The notes beneath the pieces were generated by a model. That model saw nothing but the letters and a program-made list of their open reading frames with translations, did not search any database and was not told the origin of the DNA. 43,199 nucleotides of DNA from Silanimonas sp. Its GTDB lineage: Bacteria > Pseudomonadota > Gammaproteobacteria > Xanthomonadales > Xanthomonadaceae. This document shows positions 1-9,299 of the stretch, one piece after another. The stretch spans positions 1 through 43,199 of the forward strand of contig BPKK01000019.1 in assembly GCA_026005095.1 (NCBI GenBank), in the 5' to 3' direction. The stretch's first letter is position 1. The number at the start of each line of letters is the position of its first letter. Position numbers and translations under genes: made by a program.

Positions 1-98
1 GGGGTGGCCGGCACGGGAGAGGCCTCGGACGGGGCCGGCCACCCGGCGAACAGCACCAGGCCGGCGAGCAGCGGAAGGGCGGGCGACGGACGCGACAT
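1..98 (-). CDS. N-terminus of a secreted protein (partial, runs off the window)
   Basis: The minus strand opens with ATG at 98 and stays open to the window edge, 32 complete codons. The translation starts MSRPSPALPLLAGLVLFAGW and continues PAPSEASPVPATP: a hydrophobic core followed by a small-residue stretch (SEA/SP) that fits a Sec signal peptide cleavage site. GAGGTG sits 5 nt upstream of the ATG as a ribosome binding site, and TACCAT at 137-142 (minus strand) could be the -10. It is divergent from the peptide transporter. The mature protein lies outside the window, so its function cannot be named; an exported peptidase would fit the neighbour but that is a guess. Confidence 0.6.
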   Translation of the reverse strand, partial: MSRPSPALPLLAGLVLFAGWPAPSEASPVPAT

Positions 99-5943: not shown

Positions 5944-6002
5944 CGTTGGCCTCTGTCGCAGGCGGTGAGAAACGCGGCGGGTGGAATGCCCCTGCCGGCC
6001 GC

Positions 6003-6036
6003 TTGACGGCTCTGTCGATACCACACATATTTGTGG
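6003..6036 (+). promoter_or_regulatory. lexA promoter with overlapping palindromic operator
   Basis: TTGACG (6003-6008) as -35, a 17-bp spacer and CATATT (6026-6031) as -10 form the best sigma-70-type promoter in the window. The -10 is the exact centre of the palindrome CCACA-N6-TGTGG (6021-6036), a likely autoregulatory LexA site, so bound repressor would cover the -10. The predicted start site, about 7 nt after the -10, coincides with the ATG at 6038, so the mRNA would be leaderless. The palindrome is not the E. coli CTGT-N8-ACAG box. Confidence 0.6.
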
Positions 6037-6037
6037 C

Positions 6038-6697
6038 ATGACCCTCACCGACCGCCAGCTCGCCATCCTCGACTTCCTCCGCGCCTACCTCGCGGCGGAA
6101 GGCCGGCCGCCCACGCTGGCCGAGATCGCGTCGGCCTTCGGCTTCCGCCAGGCCCGCAGCGCCCAGGACCACCTGCAGGCGCTGGCCGCCAAGGGCGCCA
6201 TCGAGCTGGTGCCGGGCGCGCGCGGCATCCGCCTGCGCGACGAAACCGCCCCATCGGCGCCATCGGCGGCCGCCTCCCCGGCCGGCCGCCCGGGCCGGGA
6301 CGCCATGGCCGACAGCCTGCTCACCCTGCCCCTGCTGGGCCAGGTGGCGGCGGGCCGGCCGATCGACCCGCAGGCCGACTACGAGGGGGAACTGCTGCTC
6401 GACCGCGCCCTGTTCTTCCCCACCCCGGACTACCTGCTGCGGGTGAAGGGCGACTCGATGCGCGACGACGGCATCTTCGATGGCGACCTGATCGCCGTGC
6501 GCCGCTGCCCCACCGCCGAGAACCACCAGATCGTCGTCGCGAGGATCGACGGCGAGATCACCGTGAAGCGGCTGAAGCGCGGCAAGGACCGCGTGCTGCT
6601 GATGCCGCGCAACCCCGCCCATGCGCCCATCGAGGTGCCTGCCGAGGCCGATTTCGCCATCGAAGGCCTCTACTGCGGCCTCGTGCGGCGCGGCTGA
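6038..6697 (+). CDS. lexA: LexA repressor (SOS regulator, S24 autoprotease)
   Basis: LexA represses DNA-damage genes and cleaves itself when RecA filaments form. The 219-residue protein has an N-terminal winged HTH (residues 1-67, with TLAEIASAFGF and ARGIRL), an Ala/Pro-rich linker (about 68-90) and a C-terminal protease domain. The cleavage site is A105-G106, and the catalytic pair is S140 (GDSM) and K177 (EITVKRL); spacings of 35 and 37 residues match those of E. coli LexA. The ATG at 6038 has no ribosome binding site and appears leaderless. A small membrane-protein gene follows after 17 bp. No imuA-imuB-dnaE2 cassette is present. Confidence 0.93.
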   Translation: MTLTDRQLAILDFLRAYLAAEGRPPTLAEIASAFGFRQARSAQDHLQALAAKGAIELVPGARGIRLRDETAPSAPSAAASPAGRPGRDAMADSLLTLPLLGQVAAGRPIDPQADYEGELLLDRALFFPTPDYLLRVKGDSMRDDGIFDGDLIAVRRCPTAENHQIVVARIDGEITVKRLKRGKDRVLLMPRNPAHAPIEVPAEADFAIEGLYCGLVRRG

Positions 6698-6939: not shown

Positions 6940-6961
6940 AGACCCGCCACCGGTTTGCGAA

Positions 6962-7010
6962 CCGGCAGCGGCGCGCCTCCGGCCTCGTCCCCGGAGGCGC
7001 GCCCTGCCGG
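6962..7010. terminator. Strong bidirectional hairpin between convergent transcripts
   Basis: CCGGCAG (6962-6968) pairs with CTGCCGG (7004-7010), and after a single bulged C the stem continues with GGCGCGCCTCCGG (6970-6982) against CCGGAGGCGCGCC (6991-7003): a 20-bp stem with an 8-nt loop. It sits between the lexA-operon end and the metalloprotease-like gene end. A smaller hairpin, CCGGTT-TGCG-AACCGG (6950-6965), shares four bases with it, so the two are mutually exclusive. There is no T tract. Confidence 0.65.
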
Positions 7011-7041
7011 GGCTCGCACACCGAGGAAGGAAGTGTCGGCG

Positions 7042-7902
7042 TCAGGGCTCGGAGGCGGACGCGGGTTCGTCGAGAAACACCGCCCGAGTCCGACGTTCGA
7101 TCTCCTGCCGGCAGCGCTGCAGTCCCGCACTCCGGTCGCCACTCACGAGCGGCTGCAGCCAAGCGGCGGCATCACGCGCTGCCCGGGCCGAAGGCAGCAG
7201 CAACGCGGGAAGACCCGCCGATTCAGGATCACCGTAAACCGACATTCGCGGCGATCCGGTGACCTCCCACCGGACGCAGGCTCCCACCAGGCTGGCGACG
7301 AACTCCTCCTGATACTCACGCTCACCAGGACTCATCTCCCGCTTTGGGTCTCGCCGGGCCAGCCAAGCCAAATGCGTCAGTTCGTGAGCCAGGACATCGA
7401 CGGCCCCAGCCGCCGTTTCCTCTAGCGTGGGCCGCGCCCGGACCGCGAACTCGACCTCGAGTTCCCGCGGCGACACGCGCTTCTCGATCAAGCGCGTGAA
7501 CCGCTGGCCTTCGGGAACGAGAATCAGCGTGGCCTTGGAAACGCGCACCCAAGGCAACCACCCTTCGATAATCGGCAGAGCCTGTACTGACATCTGCGCG
7601 ACTTCACCTGCAGCGATGCCCTGCGAACACGATTCGACTCGAATCCGGTCGACCTCCGATATGTCGGGCGAAGCACACCCCGAGTCTTGCCCGCCCGCGA
7701 GATGAGAAAGGAGTCGATAGCGAACGACGCCTCTCGACACCGCAATCGGAGGCGACATCACCGCATGCAGGTCGACCTCCTGTTGCGCGATGATCCTCGG
7801 GACCGGCTTTGTCGCGCAGCCCGCCAGAATAAAAACGGCCGGCGCAAGCAGCAGCGCCGGCCTAAACGTTCCCCAGCGTGATGCGATCAGTACTCTTGGC
7901 AT
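7042..7902 (-). CDS. Lipoprotein with HELTH zinc-metalloprotease motif
   Basis: A 286-residue predicted lipoprotein: the N-terminus reads MPRVLIASRWGTFRPALLL, then a lipobox LAGC with the acylated Cys near residue 29. In the second half, AHELTHLAWLARRD carries HExxH, and EEFVASLVGAC follows with a Glu 23 residues after the second His, a spacing that fits the third ligand of gluzincin peptidases. Family is not recognised beyond this. ATG 7902 gives the cleanest signal peptide; ATG 7917 directly after GGAGG is an alternative. It overlaps the end of the upstream lipoprotein gene by 16 bp, so translation is probably coupled. Base composition is less GC-rich than neighbours. Confidence 0.65.
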   Translation of the reverse strand: MPRVLIASRWGTFRPALLLAPAVFILAGCATKPVPRIIAQQEVDLHAVMSPPIAVSRGVVRYRLLSHLAGGQDSGCASPDISEVDRIRVESCSQGIAAGEVAQMSVQALPIIEGWLPWVRVSKATLILVPEGQRFTRLIEKRVSPRELEVEFAVRARPTLEETAAGAVDVLAHELTHLAWLARRDPKREMSPGEREYQEEFVASLVGACVRWEVTGSPRMSVYGDPESAGLPALLLPSARAARDAAAWLQPLVSGDRSAGLQRCRQEIERRTRAVFLDEPASASEP

Positions 7903-8477
7903 GAGTGCGTCACACATCCTCCGCTTGAGTACCAACCAGCAGAGGAACTCGCCACCTGGATCCCGCCGTACCGAAAAGATGCCTGCAGCAAGTTCATTCC
8001 CTGCCCCCCAAAGGTCTGAAACGGATGCAGCGATGCCGTCACTGCATCAGCAGAACCGCCAACACTTGCAAGCCACTGGTTAACAGCGACGGGATTGGAC
8101 AAACGTATCGATGACCCGGTGCGATGCCATTGGAACGTATTGGCAGCGATCACGACGCCCGCACTGGCATCCTTGAGCTCCAAGGTTACGAGCCCAGACA
8201 TTGGAATGCCGACAGACGAGCCTTGGACATCAATCTCGAACGAGGCCGTATCGATCAGATCCGACTGGGTCTGAGCAGCAATGTCATCCTGCTGGGGGGA
8301 TGCGCCCCGCTTCTCCTGTGGCTTTGGCTTTCCTTCGACCTCGCCAACAATCTTGCACTCGCCTCGATTGTTGCATTCCACACGCCCTCTGAATGACCAG
8401 TCCATGCTCGCACACCCGGACAAAAGGGTGCTGGCCAACGCGAGAAGACCCATTCCAATCCTGATTGTCATAGTCAC
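7887..8477 (-). CDS. Lipoprotein of unknown function, first gene of the two-lipoprotein island
   Basis: A 196-residue protein with signal peptide and lipobox (LLALASTLLSGC, lipid Cys at about 22). The mature part has RVECNNRGECKIVGEVEGKP with two Cys six residues apart, a charged linker, then a beta-rich region (SFEIDVQGSSVGIPMSGLVTLELKD) and a Gly/Ser-rich end with two more Cys (GGCVTHSCQEY), suggesting disulfides. I do not recognise a family. The start is GTG 8477 or ATG 8471; GGAG lies just upstream. GC is visibly lower than in flanking genes. It precedes and overlaps the metalloprotease-like gene and is driven by the poly-G promoter. Confidence 0.6.
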   Translation of the reverse strand: MTMTIRIGMGLLALASTLLSGCASMDWSFRGRVECNNRGECKIVGEVEGKPKPQEKRGASPQQDDIAAQTQSDLIDTASFEIDVQGSSVGIPMSGLVTLELKDASAGVVIAANTFQWHRTGSSIRLSNPVAVNQWLASVGGSADAVTASLHPFQTFGGQGMNLLQASFRYGGIQVASSSAGWYSSGGCVTHSCQEY

Positions 8478-8492
8478 ATCGCTCCGTACCGT

Positions 8493-8509
8493 GATCTTCG
8501 CCGAAGATC
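8493..8509. promoter_or_regulatory. Palindrome in the leader of the lipoprotein pair
   Basis: GATCTTCG (8493-8500) and CGAAGATC (8502-8509) are perfect reverse complements around one base. On the minus strand this falls between the predicted transcription start (about 8512) and the start codon at 8477, so it could be a repressor operator or a 5' leader hairpin close to the ribosome binding site. Confidence 0.45.
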
Positions 8510-8518
8510 GGCGCGACG

Positions 8519-8547
8519 AAACTACCCCCCCCCTAAAATCGCGTCAA
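8519..8547 (-). promoter_or_regulatory. Promoter with a G9 tract in its spacer (candidate phase-variable)
   Basis: On the minus strand TTGACG (8547-8542, five of six matches to the -35 consensus) is followed by a 17-nt spacer (8541-8525) and TAGTTT (8524-8519), which fits the TANNNT -10 form common in this window. The last nine bases of the spacer are all G. It is the longest homopolymer I see in the window. Gain or loss of a G would change the spacer from its optimal 17 bp. It starts 30 bp after the hda stop and drives the two lipoprotein genes. Confidence 0.5.
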
Positions 8548-8576
8548 GCCCGAGTTCATGACAAACAGCGAACGGG

Positions 8577-9299
8577 TCAGGTGCCCGCAAACCGACGCCC
8601 TGATTTGCCCGACCCCACCTCCAGCACCTTCCGCACGAAGGGCACGGTGAGCCGGCGCTGCGCCGCCAGCGCGGCGCGGTCGAGGCGGTCGAGCAGGGCG
8701 GTGAGCGAGCGCAGGTCGCGCTCGACGCGACGGAACAGGTAGTCCAGCACGGCATCGTCCAGCTCCAGTCCGCGCCGGGCGGCACGCCGCCGCAGGGCCT
8801 CGCGGCGGCCGGCCTCGTCGAGCGGATCGAGCGAGACGCGCAGGGCCTGGCCGAGGCGCGAGCGCAGGTCGGGCAGGGGCCAGGCGGCATCGCCCGCCGG
8901 CAGGCGCGAGCCGTAGAGCAGGCTGCGGCCGGCATCGCGCAGGCGGTTGTGCAGGTGGAACATGGCCTCGGCATCGGCCGGGAAGGCGGTAAGCGCCTCG
9001 AGCCCGTCCACCGCCAGCAGGTCCACGGCCTCGAGGCCCGGCGCGAGTTCGCCCAGGGCGCCGGCGAAGGCCGGCAGCGGCAGGTAGCGGGCGCGGCGGC
9101 CCCGGGCCTCGGCCTCGCGGCAGGCCGCGAGCAGCAGATGGCTCTTGCCGCTGCCCTCGCCACCTTCGACGAAAAGCAGGGGCTCGCCCTCGCCGGCGGC
9201 AGCGGCGGCCACCGCCTGCACCGCCCAGTCATGGCCCACGAAGAGATCGAAGCGCTGGTCCGGCCCGATCGGCAGGGCGAGCGGGAGCTGCGCCTTCAT
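8577..9299 (-). CDS. hda: Hda, DnaA-related regulator of replication initiation
   Basis: Hda binds the DNA sliding clamp and stimulates ATP hydrolysis by DnaA, preventing re-initiation. The 240-residue protein starts MKAQLPLALP, which contains the clamp-binding QL-x-L-type motif at residues 4-9. The AAA+ domain has Walker A GGEGSGKS (46-53) and Walker B-like LLAVDGLEAL, and the C-terminal lid helices include RRVERDLRSLTALLDRLDRAAL. The length is typical of Hda and it lacks the DnaA DNA-binding domain IV. The start overlaps the perM stop (ATGA), so translation is coupled. The gene order DUF2066-perM-hda facing purM is common in gammaproteobacteria. Confidence 0.92.
   Translation of the reverse strand: MKAQLPLALPIGPDQRFDLFVGHDWAVQAVAAAAAGEGEPLLFVEGGEGSGKSHLLLAACREAEARGRRARYLPLPAFAGALGELAPGLEAVDLLAVDGLEALTAFPADAEAMFHLHNRLRDAGRSLLYGSRLPAGDAAWPLPDLRSRLGQALRVSLDPLDEAGRREALRRRAARRGLELDDAVLDYLFRRVERDLRSLTALLDRLDRAALAAQRRLTVPFVRKVLEVGSGKSGRRFAGT

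What the first reader, a model, noticed from the sequence alone, without database searches (positions are those of the whole stretch)
8478..8548. Nine-G tract inside the promoter spacer of a lipoprotein pair: candidate phase-variable switch
On the minus strand the sequence reads TTGACG, a 17-nt spacer whose last nine bases are G, then TAGTTT. Spacer-length changes by slippage in poly-G/C tracts are the established mechanism for phase-variable promoters such as Neisseria porA and Bordetella fim. Here it is the longest homopolymer I see in the window, and it lies exactly between the predicted -35 and -10. The transcript would encode two surface-type lipoproteins, typical clients of phase variation. 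A perfect palindrome (8493-8509) sits in the leader. The -10 is weak (three of six matches), so the promoter is a prediction.
Basis: partly seen in the sequence, partly recalled or inferred. Interest (0 to 1): 0.7.

Follow-up and report, generated by a model that had tools for sequence, protein, structure and literature searches.

The report
Slippery-spacer promoters of surface-protein cassettes
A run of nine Gs sits between the two predicted promoter boxes of a two-lipoprotein cassette in a Silanimonas bacterium; some relatives keep G or C runs, of differing length, at the same place before related genes, so the run likely works as a random switch of surface-protein expression.

Summary
On the minus strand TTGACG (8547-8542), a 17-nt spacer ending in G9 and TAGTTT (8524-8519) lie 29 nt after hda and before two overlapping lipoprotein genes. 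A consensus scan scores no promoter there and a G9 run alone is not rare in this genome; comparison makes the case. Five of the genome's 69 runs of 8 or more G have a TTGA-type hexamer 8-9 nt upstream, 0.07 expected. In 395 Lysobacteraceae genomes the pattern occurs 23 times against 5 in the reversed control. The sixth base of the -10, not searched for, is T in 14 of 20 sites against 17% nearby. Downstream genes have signal peptides in 19 of 21 cases against 17%. Homologues of the window's own cassette in two other genera also have run spacers: poly-G in one, poly-C in the other. Both tracts shared with Silanimonas lenta changed length; 0 of 50 other G/C runs did. Best reading: phase-variable promoters of the porA kind, repeated over accessory surface-protein cassettes. 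Switching itself is untested, and the window's own tract has no close orthologue to compare.

The parts
8542..8547 (-). predicted -35 hexamer TTGACG
   Evidence: TTGACA or TTGACG in most sister sites
8525..8541 (-). 17-nt promoter spacer, CGATTTTA followed by G9
8525..8533 (-). nine-G run, the proposed slippery tract
   Evidence: sister tracts change length between relatives
8519..8524 (-). predicted -10 hexamer TAGTTT (3 of 6 matches to TATAAT)
   Evidence: T at base 6 in 14 of 20 sister sites, P 2.5e-7; not called by consensus scan
8493..8509 (-). perfect palindrome in the leader, possible hairpin at the 5' end of the predicted transcript
   Evidence: folding not beyond shuffles (fraction 0.17)
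7887..8477 (-). LP1, lipoprotein of 194-196 aa (ATG at 8471 or GTG at 8477), lipobox LSGC
   Evidence: homologues with run spacers in G078, G089, G115
7042..7902 (-). LP2, lipoprotein of 286 aa, lipobox LAGC, HELTH motif; predicted zinc peptidase-like
   Evidence: overlaps LP1 by 16 nt
7018..8612 (.). accessory block (promoter, LP1, LP2) with no match in Silanimonas lenta DSM 16282
   Evidence: flanks 99% identical on both sides; no LP1 match in G001
8577..9299 (-). hda (DnaA regulatory inactivator), upstream neighbour on the same strand; its last codons belong to the variable block
   Evidence: TIGR03420 above cut-off; 99% identical to S. lenta over residues 1-229
5981..6697 (+). lexA, conserved gene on the far side of the block, convergent with it
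   Evidence: TIGR00498 above cut-off

Best explanation
The nine-G run fills the second half of the 17-nt spacer between a TTGACG and a TAGTTT hexamer and is likely a phase-variable promoter spacer: replication slippage would add or remove Gs, change the distance between the predicted -35 and -10 boxes, and so raise or lower transcription of the two lipoprotein genes behind it. Shown directly: the layout; four similar sites elsewhere in the genome (one of them, on C8, without a TA after the run); G- or C-run spacers before homologous cassettes in two other genera; different lengths in all four orthologous tract pairs compared; signal peptides, by a crude rule, on 19 of 21 downstream genes. Inferred: that the hexamers are used by the main sigma factor, that the tract mutates within a population, that 17 nt is the high-expression state here (listed sister sites range from 15 to 21 nt), and that mixed surface states are the selected benefit. 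The window's promoter is one copy of a recurrent arrangement: small cassettes, often a small secreted protein plus a larger lipoprotein or anchored protein, beside housekeeping genes (hda, gspE/gspF type, P-II type), each carrying its own homopolymer-spacer promoter; three of the five in this genome are missing at the same place in S. lenta.
For: (1) Five of 69 runs of 8 or more G have TTGA[AC][AG] 8-9 nt upstream, 0.07 expected, controls none. (2) Pattern in 395 family genomes: 23 sites in 14 genomes, reversed control 5 in 4 genomes; outside the family 7 against 6 in 226 genomes, i.e. chance. (3) T at base 6 of the -10, not in the pattern: 14 of 20 sites against 17.1% at neighbouring positions, P 2.5e-7 (of the 23 rows, G133 and the G001 C13 row were dropped as orthologues of kept sites and G089 as a poor contig end). 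(4) Signal peptide by a crude rule: 19 of 21 downstream genes against 34 of 198. (5) Homologues of LP1: poly-G spacers at both G078 copies, poly-C spacers in G089 and G115; the poly-C pattern occurs twice in 395 genomes, at exactly those two genes, control 0 (pattern written after seeing them). LP2-like genes with HExxH follow in all four. (6) C13 gene family: 7 of 16 homologues have G or C runs of 7 or more close upstream, in 6 genera, 4 poly-G and 3 poly-C. (7) Length: C13 G10 against G11 and C16a G11 against C+G7 in S. lenta; G133 G9 against G328 G8 with identical bases for 60 nt before and over 60 nt after; G000 C16b G11 against G005 G10, flanks diverged. In 32,161 aligned columns against S. 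lenta both promoter tracts changed and 0 of 50 other G/C runs of 5 or more did.
Against: No expression, read or population data. The promoter is below a consensus threshold and its -10 matches 3 of 6. The window's own tract has no close orthologue, so its own variability is unseen. Tract lengths come from assemblies; the host is an 83%-complete assembly. The contrast is confounded with length: the two tracts are also the two longest runs (10 and 11; the rest 5-8). Tracts are not universal: LP1 homologues G083, G021 and G110, and G066 with an unclear gene start, show none; 9 of 16 C13-family homologues have none, including all 7 of genus g55; 26 of the 30 loci inspected of the C16b family have no promoter-type tract (4 of these 26 have G7 or G8 runs elsewhere upstream). 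With a looser pattern (7 or more G) in the eight Silanimonas-genus genomes G000-G007 the hits are 9 against 3 control hits. Spacers of 19-21 nt in 12 of 23 listed sites would be poor promoters if read strictly. The C8 site has no TA after its tract. Two of the 20 tested sites (G072, G104) read by eye like chance hits before housekeeping-type genes.
Confidence: 0.82

Rival explanations
1. The run is a neutral homopolymer of a 71% GC genome that happens to lie near promoter-like words, with no role in expression.
For: 69 runs of 8 or more G exist in the genome, many of them inside long open frames; the promoter is not called by a consensus scan; many homologous genes lack a run.
Against: Fixed distance to a -35 word at five sites (0.07 expected, controls none), T at base 6 of the -10 in 14 of 20, homologous cassettes with runs at the same place in three genera, with C in place of G in one of them.
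Confidence: 0.07
2. The run is a fixed structural or protein-binding element of the promoter (stiff spacer, G-rich structure or activator site) that is kept for its shape and not for its mutability.
For: A C run is a G run on the other strand, so a strand-blind structural role would also fit the poly-C cassettes.
Against: Length differs in all four orthologous pairs compared, listed spacers range from 15 to 21 nt, and the run's position in the spacer shifts between genera.
Confidence: 0.06
3. The true transcription start lies upstream, so the run is in the 5' leader and slippage would act on mRNA or translation instead of on the promoter.
For: Weak -10; hda is on the same strand 29 nt upstream, so read-through is possible.
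Against: The -35 word at fixed distance upstream and T at base 6 of the -10 downstream of the runs are promoter signatures.
Confidence: 0.05

Closest known systems
Neisseria meningitidis porA promoter (PMC3639595; abstract and found passages seen)
   Same: Poly-G run between the -35 and -10 boxes (11 G in the strain studied, 9G and 10G variants recovered); length changes alter the level of an outer-membrane protein.
   Different: Here switching is not observed; the layout recurs on several unrelated cassettes of one genome, and homologous cassettes in another genus use poly-C in place of poly-G.
Multi-locus repeat-tract phase variation of N. meningitidis (PMC5084427; found passages seen)
   Same: Many homopolymer tracts, some in promoters, tied to surface genes; tracts of 8 or more mostly variable there.
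   Different: There length variation was checked by deep sequencing of colonies; here only relatives are compared. The class here is confined to promoter spacers.
Bordetella fim promoters (recalled, no call)
   Same: C run that controls a surface structure by length.
   Different: From recall, the run lies outside the -35/-10 spacer and acts on activator spacing; here it is inside the spacer.

Membership tests
Phase-variable promoter spacer, porA type | mononucleotide run inside the -35/-10 spacer | tested here: met
   8547-8519, 17 nt with G9; the hexamers are predictions, supported by T at base 6 in 14 of 20 sites
Phase-variable promoter spacer, porA type | tract length differs between close relatives | tested here: inconclusive
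   Met for four sister tract pairs; the window's own tract has no orthologue
Phase-variable promoter spacer, porA type | downstream gene encodes an exposed or exported product | tested here: met
   Lipoboxes in LP1 and LP2; 19 of 21 genes of the class with signal peptides by a crude rule; surface exposure itself not tested
Phase-variable promoter spacer, porA type | reversible length change within a population | not testable with these tools
   needs reads of one culture
Phase-variable promoter spacer, porA type | expression level depends on tract length | not testable with these tools
   needs reporters or RNA data
Bordetella fim type | C run outside the -35/-10 spacer next to an activator site (recalled) | tested here: not met
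   the run is inside the spacer

The most novel reading that the evidence does not exclude
Lysobacteraceae carry an undescribed contingency system: exchangeable, often two-gene cassettes of secreted proteins and lipoproteins, set beside housekeeping genes, each under its own slippery G- or C-run promoter that flips independently, so that one genome yields many surface combinations; selection keeps the slipperiness even when the tract's base and position are replaced.
Probability: 0.6. Interest if true: 0.85.

Novelty: new variant of a known kind. Interest (0 to 1): 0.76.

Why it matters
Phase-variable promoters are known mainly from host-adapted pathogens (general knowledge, recalled). A set of them in Silanimonas and other Lysobacteraceae would mean that random surface switching also serves outside that setting. 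The use of G runs in some genera and C runs in another at homologous cassettes gives natural replicates in which the slippery property is kept while its letters change, which makes selection for mutability itself testable. The cassette proteins tested matched no family above its cut-off; a switch acting on them hints at an interaction partner such as a phage, predator or competitor (speculation).

Tried and rejected
Leader hairpin as a common part: 45-nt leaders of 9 sites folded against 500 shuffles each; only the two C16a orthologues fell below 0.05, the window's is at 0.17; dropped. Protein identity: LP1 and LP2 match no Pfam, NCBIfam or PADLOC model; ten other cassette proteins have only sub-threshold Pfam matches or none. 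LP1's model (mean pLDDT 73) has no PDB match at E 1e-3 or better, with weak resemblance to Ig-like, adhesin and pilin folds; LP2's model (mean pLDDT 71) is nearest to M1/M61 gluzincin peptidases, also above 1e-3. A protein search found only the query itself and one relative of 61% identity without context. Longer runs of G000 (G22 at C2:176506, G15 at C3:219020, G11 at C12:26271) have no TTGA[AC][AG] 4-14 nt upstream, and G11 at C3:174734 has it at 14 nt. The looser G002 hit was not examined. Literature: nine searches were answered; by their listings none names homopolymer promoters in this family; 'Silanimonas' or 'Xanthomonadaceae' with phase-variation terms gave 0 papers, 'Lysobacter' 11 whose titles and abstract openings do not concern it. 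Only openly licensed papers are held, so absence from print is not established. Names of most G genomes could not be obtained.

Full report
Setting. The window is contig C19 of an 83%-complete, 2.45-Mb assembly, G000. Its hda region is 99% identical to that of Silanimonas lenta DSM 16282, and 2-kb stretches elsewhere are 93-95% identical, so it is a close Silanimonas relative. The type strain is held as G001 (locus L091 lies in G119, which gives the same contigs and positions as G001).

Observation. Minus strand 8547-8519 reads TTGACG-CGATTTTA-G9-TAGTTT. G9 is the longest homopolymer in the window. The -35 starts 29 nt after the hda stop. LP1 (7887-8477) and LP2 (7042-7902) overlap by 16 nt and carry lipoboxes LSGC and LAGC. 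The consensus scan finds no promoter, so the claim rests on comparison.

Same genome. A search for 8 or more G found 69 runs, 27 of them 9 or longer; the surroundings of all 69 were read and scanned. Five have TTGA[AC][AG] 8-9 nt upstream: the window; C16a at C16:29456 (G11, TAGCGT); C16b at C16:49784 (G11, TACGAT); C13:24726 (TTGAAA, G10, TAATGT); C8 (TTGACA, G11, no TA after). A sixth (C3:174734) has the word 14 nt upstream. Control scans over offsets 4-14 (reversed hexamer upstream; hexamer downstream) give none. Expected over offsets 7-10: 0.07. All five precede genes with signal peptides by a crude rule.

Cassettes. The window's block 7018-8612 has no match in S. lenta, whose flanks match at 99% on both sides; there hda is followed by other sequence and, by eye, a transposase gene at the contig end. 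The C8 block lies between a gspE gene and a gspF-type gene (gspF scores just below its cut-offs) that are 4 nt apart in S. lenta. The C16b block is missing there too, and no relative of its first gene was found in G001. C16a, 4 nt after a P-II type gene, and C13 are shared. By eye, C16a, C16b and C8 also have a second, larger gene with a lipobox or an N-terminal anchor.

Family. In 40 relatives a stricter pattern gave 7 sites in 5 genomes, control 0. In 395 Lysobacteraceae genomes TTGAMR-N7-9-G8-N0-4-TA gives 23 sites in 14 genomes against 5 control sites in 4 genomes. In a class-wide draw of 229 genomes, hits outside the family were 7 against 6 control hits in 226 genomes, so the excess belongs to this family. 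A looser pattern (7 or more G) in G000-G007 gave 9 sites against 3 control sites. For tests I dropped three of the 23 rows: G133 and the G001 C13 site as orthologues of kept sites, and G089 C46 as a poor contig end. T at base 6 of the -10, not in the pattern, is found in 14 of 20 against 17.1% nearby (P 2.5e-7); without the doubtful G072 and G104, 13 of 18. Signal peptides by a crude rule: 19 of 21 downstream genes against 34 of 198 background genes (starts of the 21 chosen by me, background starts by script; G072 counts as positive although it reads like a membrane protein). Spacers of 23 listed sites run from 15 to 21 nt.

Homologous genes. LP1: 9 matches in 8 of 99 family genomes including itself. 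Both G078 copies have G12 spacers (TTGACA; TAATGA and TAATAC); G089 and G115 have poly-C between TTGACG and TATAAA; G066 (gene start unclear), G083, G021 and G110 show none. The poly-C pattern, written after seeing these two, occurs twice in 395 genomes, only there, with no control hit. LP2-like genes with HExxH follow in all four run-bearing relatives. So operon and run spacer go together over three genera while the base of the run differs. C13 gene: 16 matches in 395 genomes; runs of 7 or more G or C close upstream in 7 (G000 G10, G001 G11, G105 G10, G042 G7, G115 C12, G246 C9, G157 C8), none in the other 9. In G246 and G157 the C run begins inside a TTGCCC word, and in G042 the G run begins inside TTGACG, so these three are weaker cases. 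C16b gene: matches in 69 of 395 genomes; of 30 loci inspected, 4 have a promoter-type G run (G000, G005, G136, G156) and 26 do not, 4 of them with G7-G8 runs elsewhere upstream.

Length. Four orthologous pairs can be compared and all differ: C13 10/11, C16a 11/C+7, G133-G328 9/8, C16b 11/10 (the last with diverged flanks). In G133 the promoter and leader match G328 but the sequence then diverges near the start of the gene, close to a contig end. Against S. lenta, in 32,161 aligned columns, both promoter tracts changed and 0 of 50 other G/C runs of 5 or more did. Caution: those two are also the longest.

Mechanism. Most likely slippage resets the -35/-10 distance and so the level of transcription, as for porA (PMC3639595, found passages). 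At 17 nt the window's copy would be near the optimum, hence predicted on. Shown: anatomy, recurrence, co-occurrence with homologous cassettes, length differences between relatives. Inferred: promoter use, switching within a population, benefit.

Function of the proteins is open. LP1 is predicted beta-rich; LP2 carries HExxH plus a distal EE and weakly resembles gluzincin peptidases. The mechanism is known in kind; the cassette set, its spread in this family and the G/C replacement appear in none of the paper listings I saw.

Noticed in passing
G000:C2:176506 (L019) and G000:C3:219020 (L032): Runs of 22 and 15 G, the longest in the genome, apparently between genes; the 15-G run lies about 100 nt before a gene that reads like one with a signal peptide, but without a clear -35.
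   Followed up: partly
G000:C4:78219 (L035) and G000:C20:14195 (L070): Two 3-kb stretches of one assembly that are 99.97% identical and differ by G8 against G9 in a long open frame: a duplicated gene or redundant contigs, with a slipped tract or an assembly error.
   Followed up: partly
L156 4835-6450 (G000:C8): A two-gene accessory cassette sits between type II secretion genes of gspE and gspF type, which are 4 nt apart in S. lenta.
   Followed up: yes
window 7837-7862 (minus strand): A terminator-like stem with a T-rich tail inside the LP2 signal-peptide codons; not above the shuffle expectation (1 found, mean 1.6).
   Followed up: no
window 6951-7023: Self-complementary stretch at the lexA-side border of the cassette, with a similar match in S. 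lenta: a terminator or small repeat element.
   Followed up: no
L182 (G078:C73): A G14 promoter-type site lies before an open frame starting MRELTNEEMEQVGGG, a double-glycine leader of the bacteriocin kind (recognised by eye).
   Followed up: no
L178 (G328), L179 (G220): By eye homologous secreted proteins behind G-run promoters in genus g64; the G328 protein has a sub-threshold match to phospholipase A2 families.
   Followed up: partly
L157 (G005), L074 (C16b), L180 (G108:C6): Second genes of some cassettes read like thioredoxin-fold proteins (CGFS, CPPC motifs, by eye) next to small first genes with several Cys.
   Followed up: no
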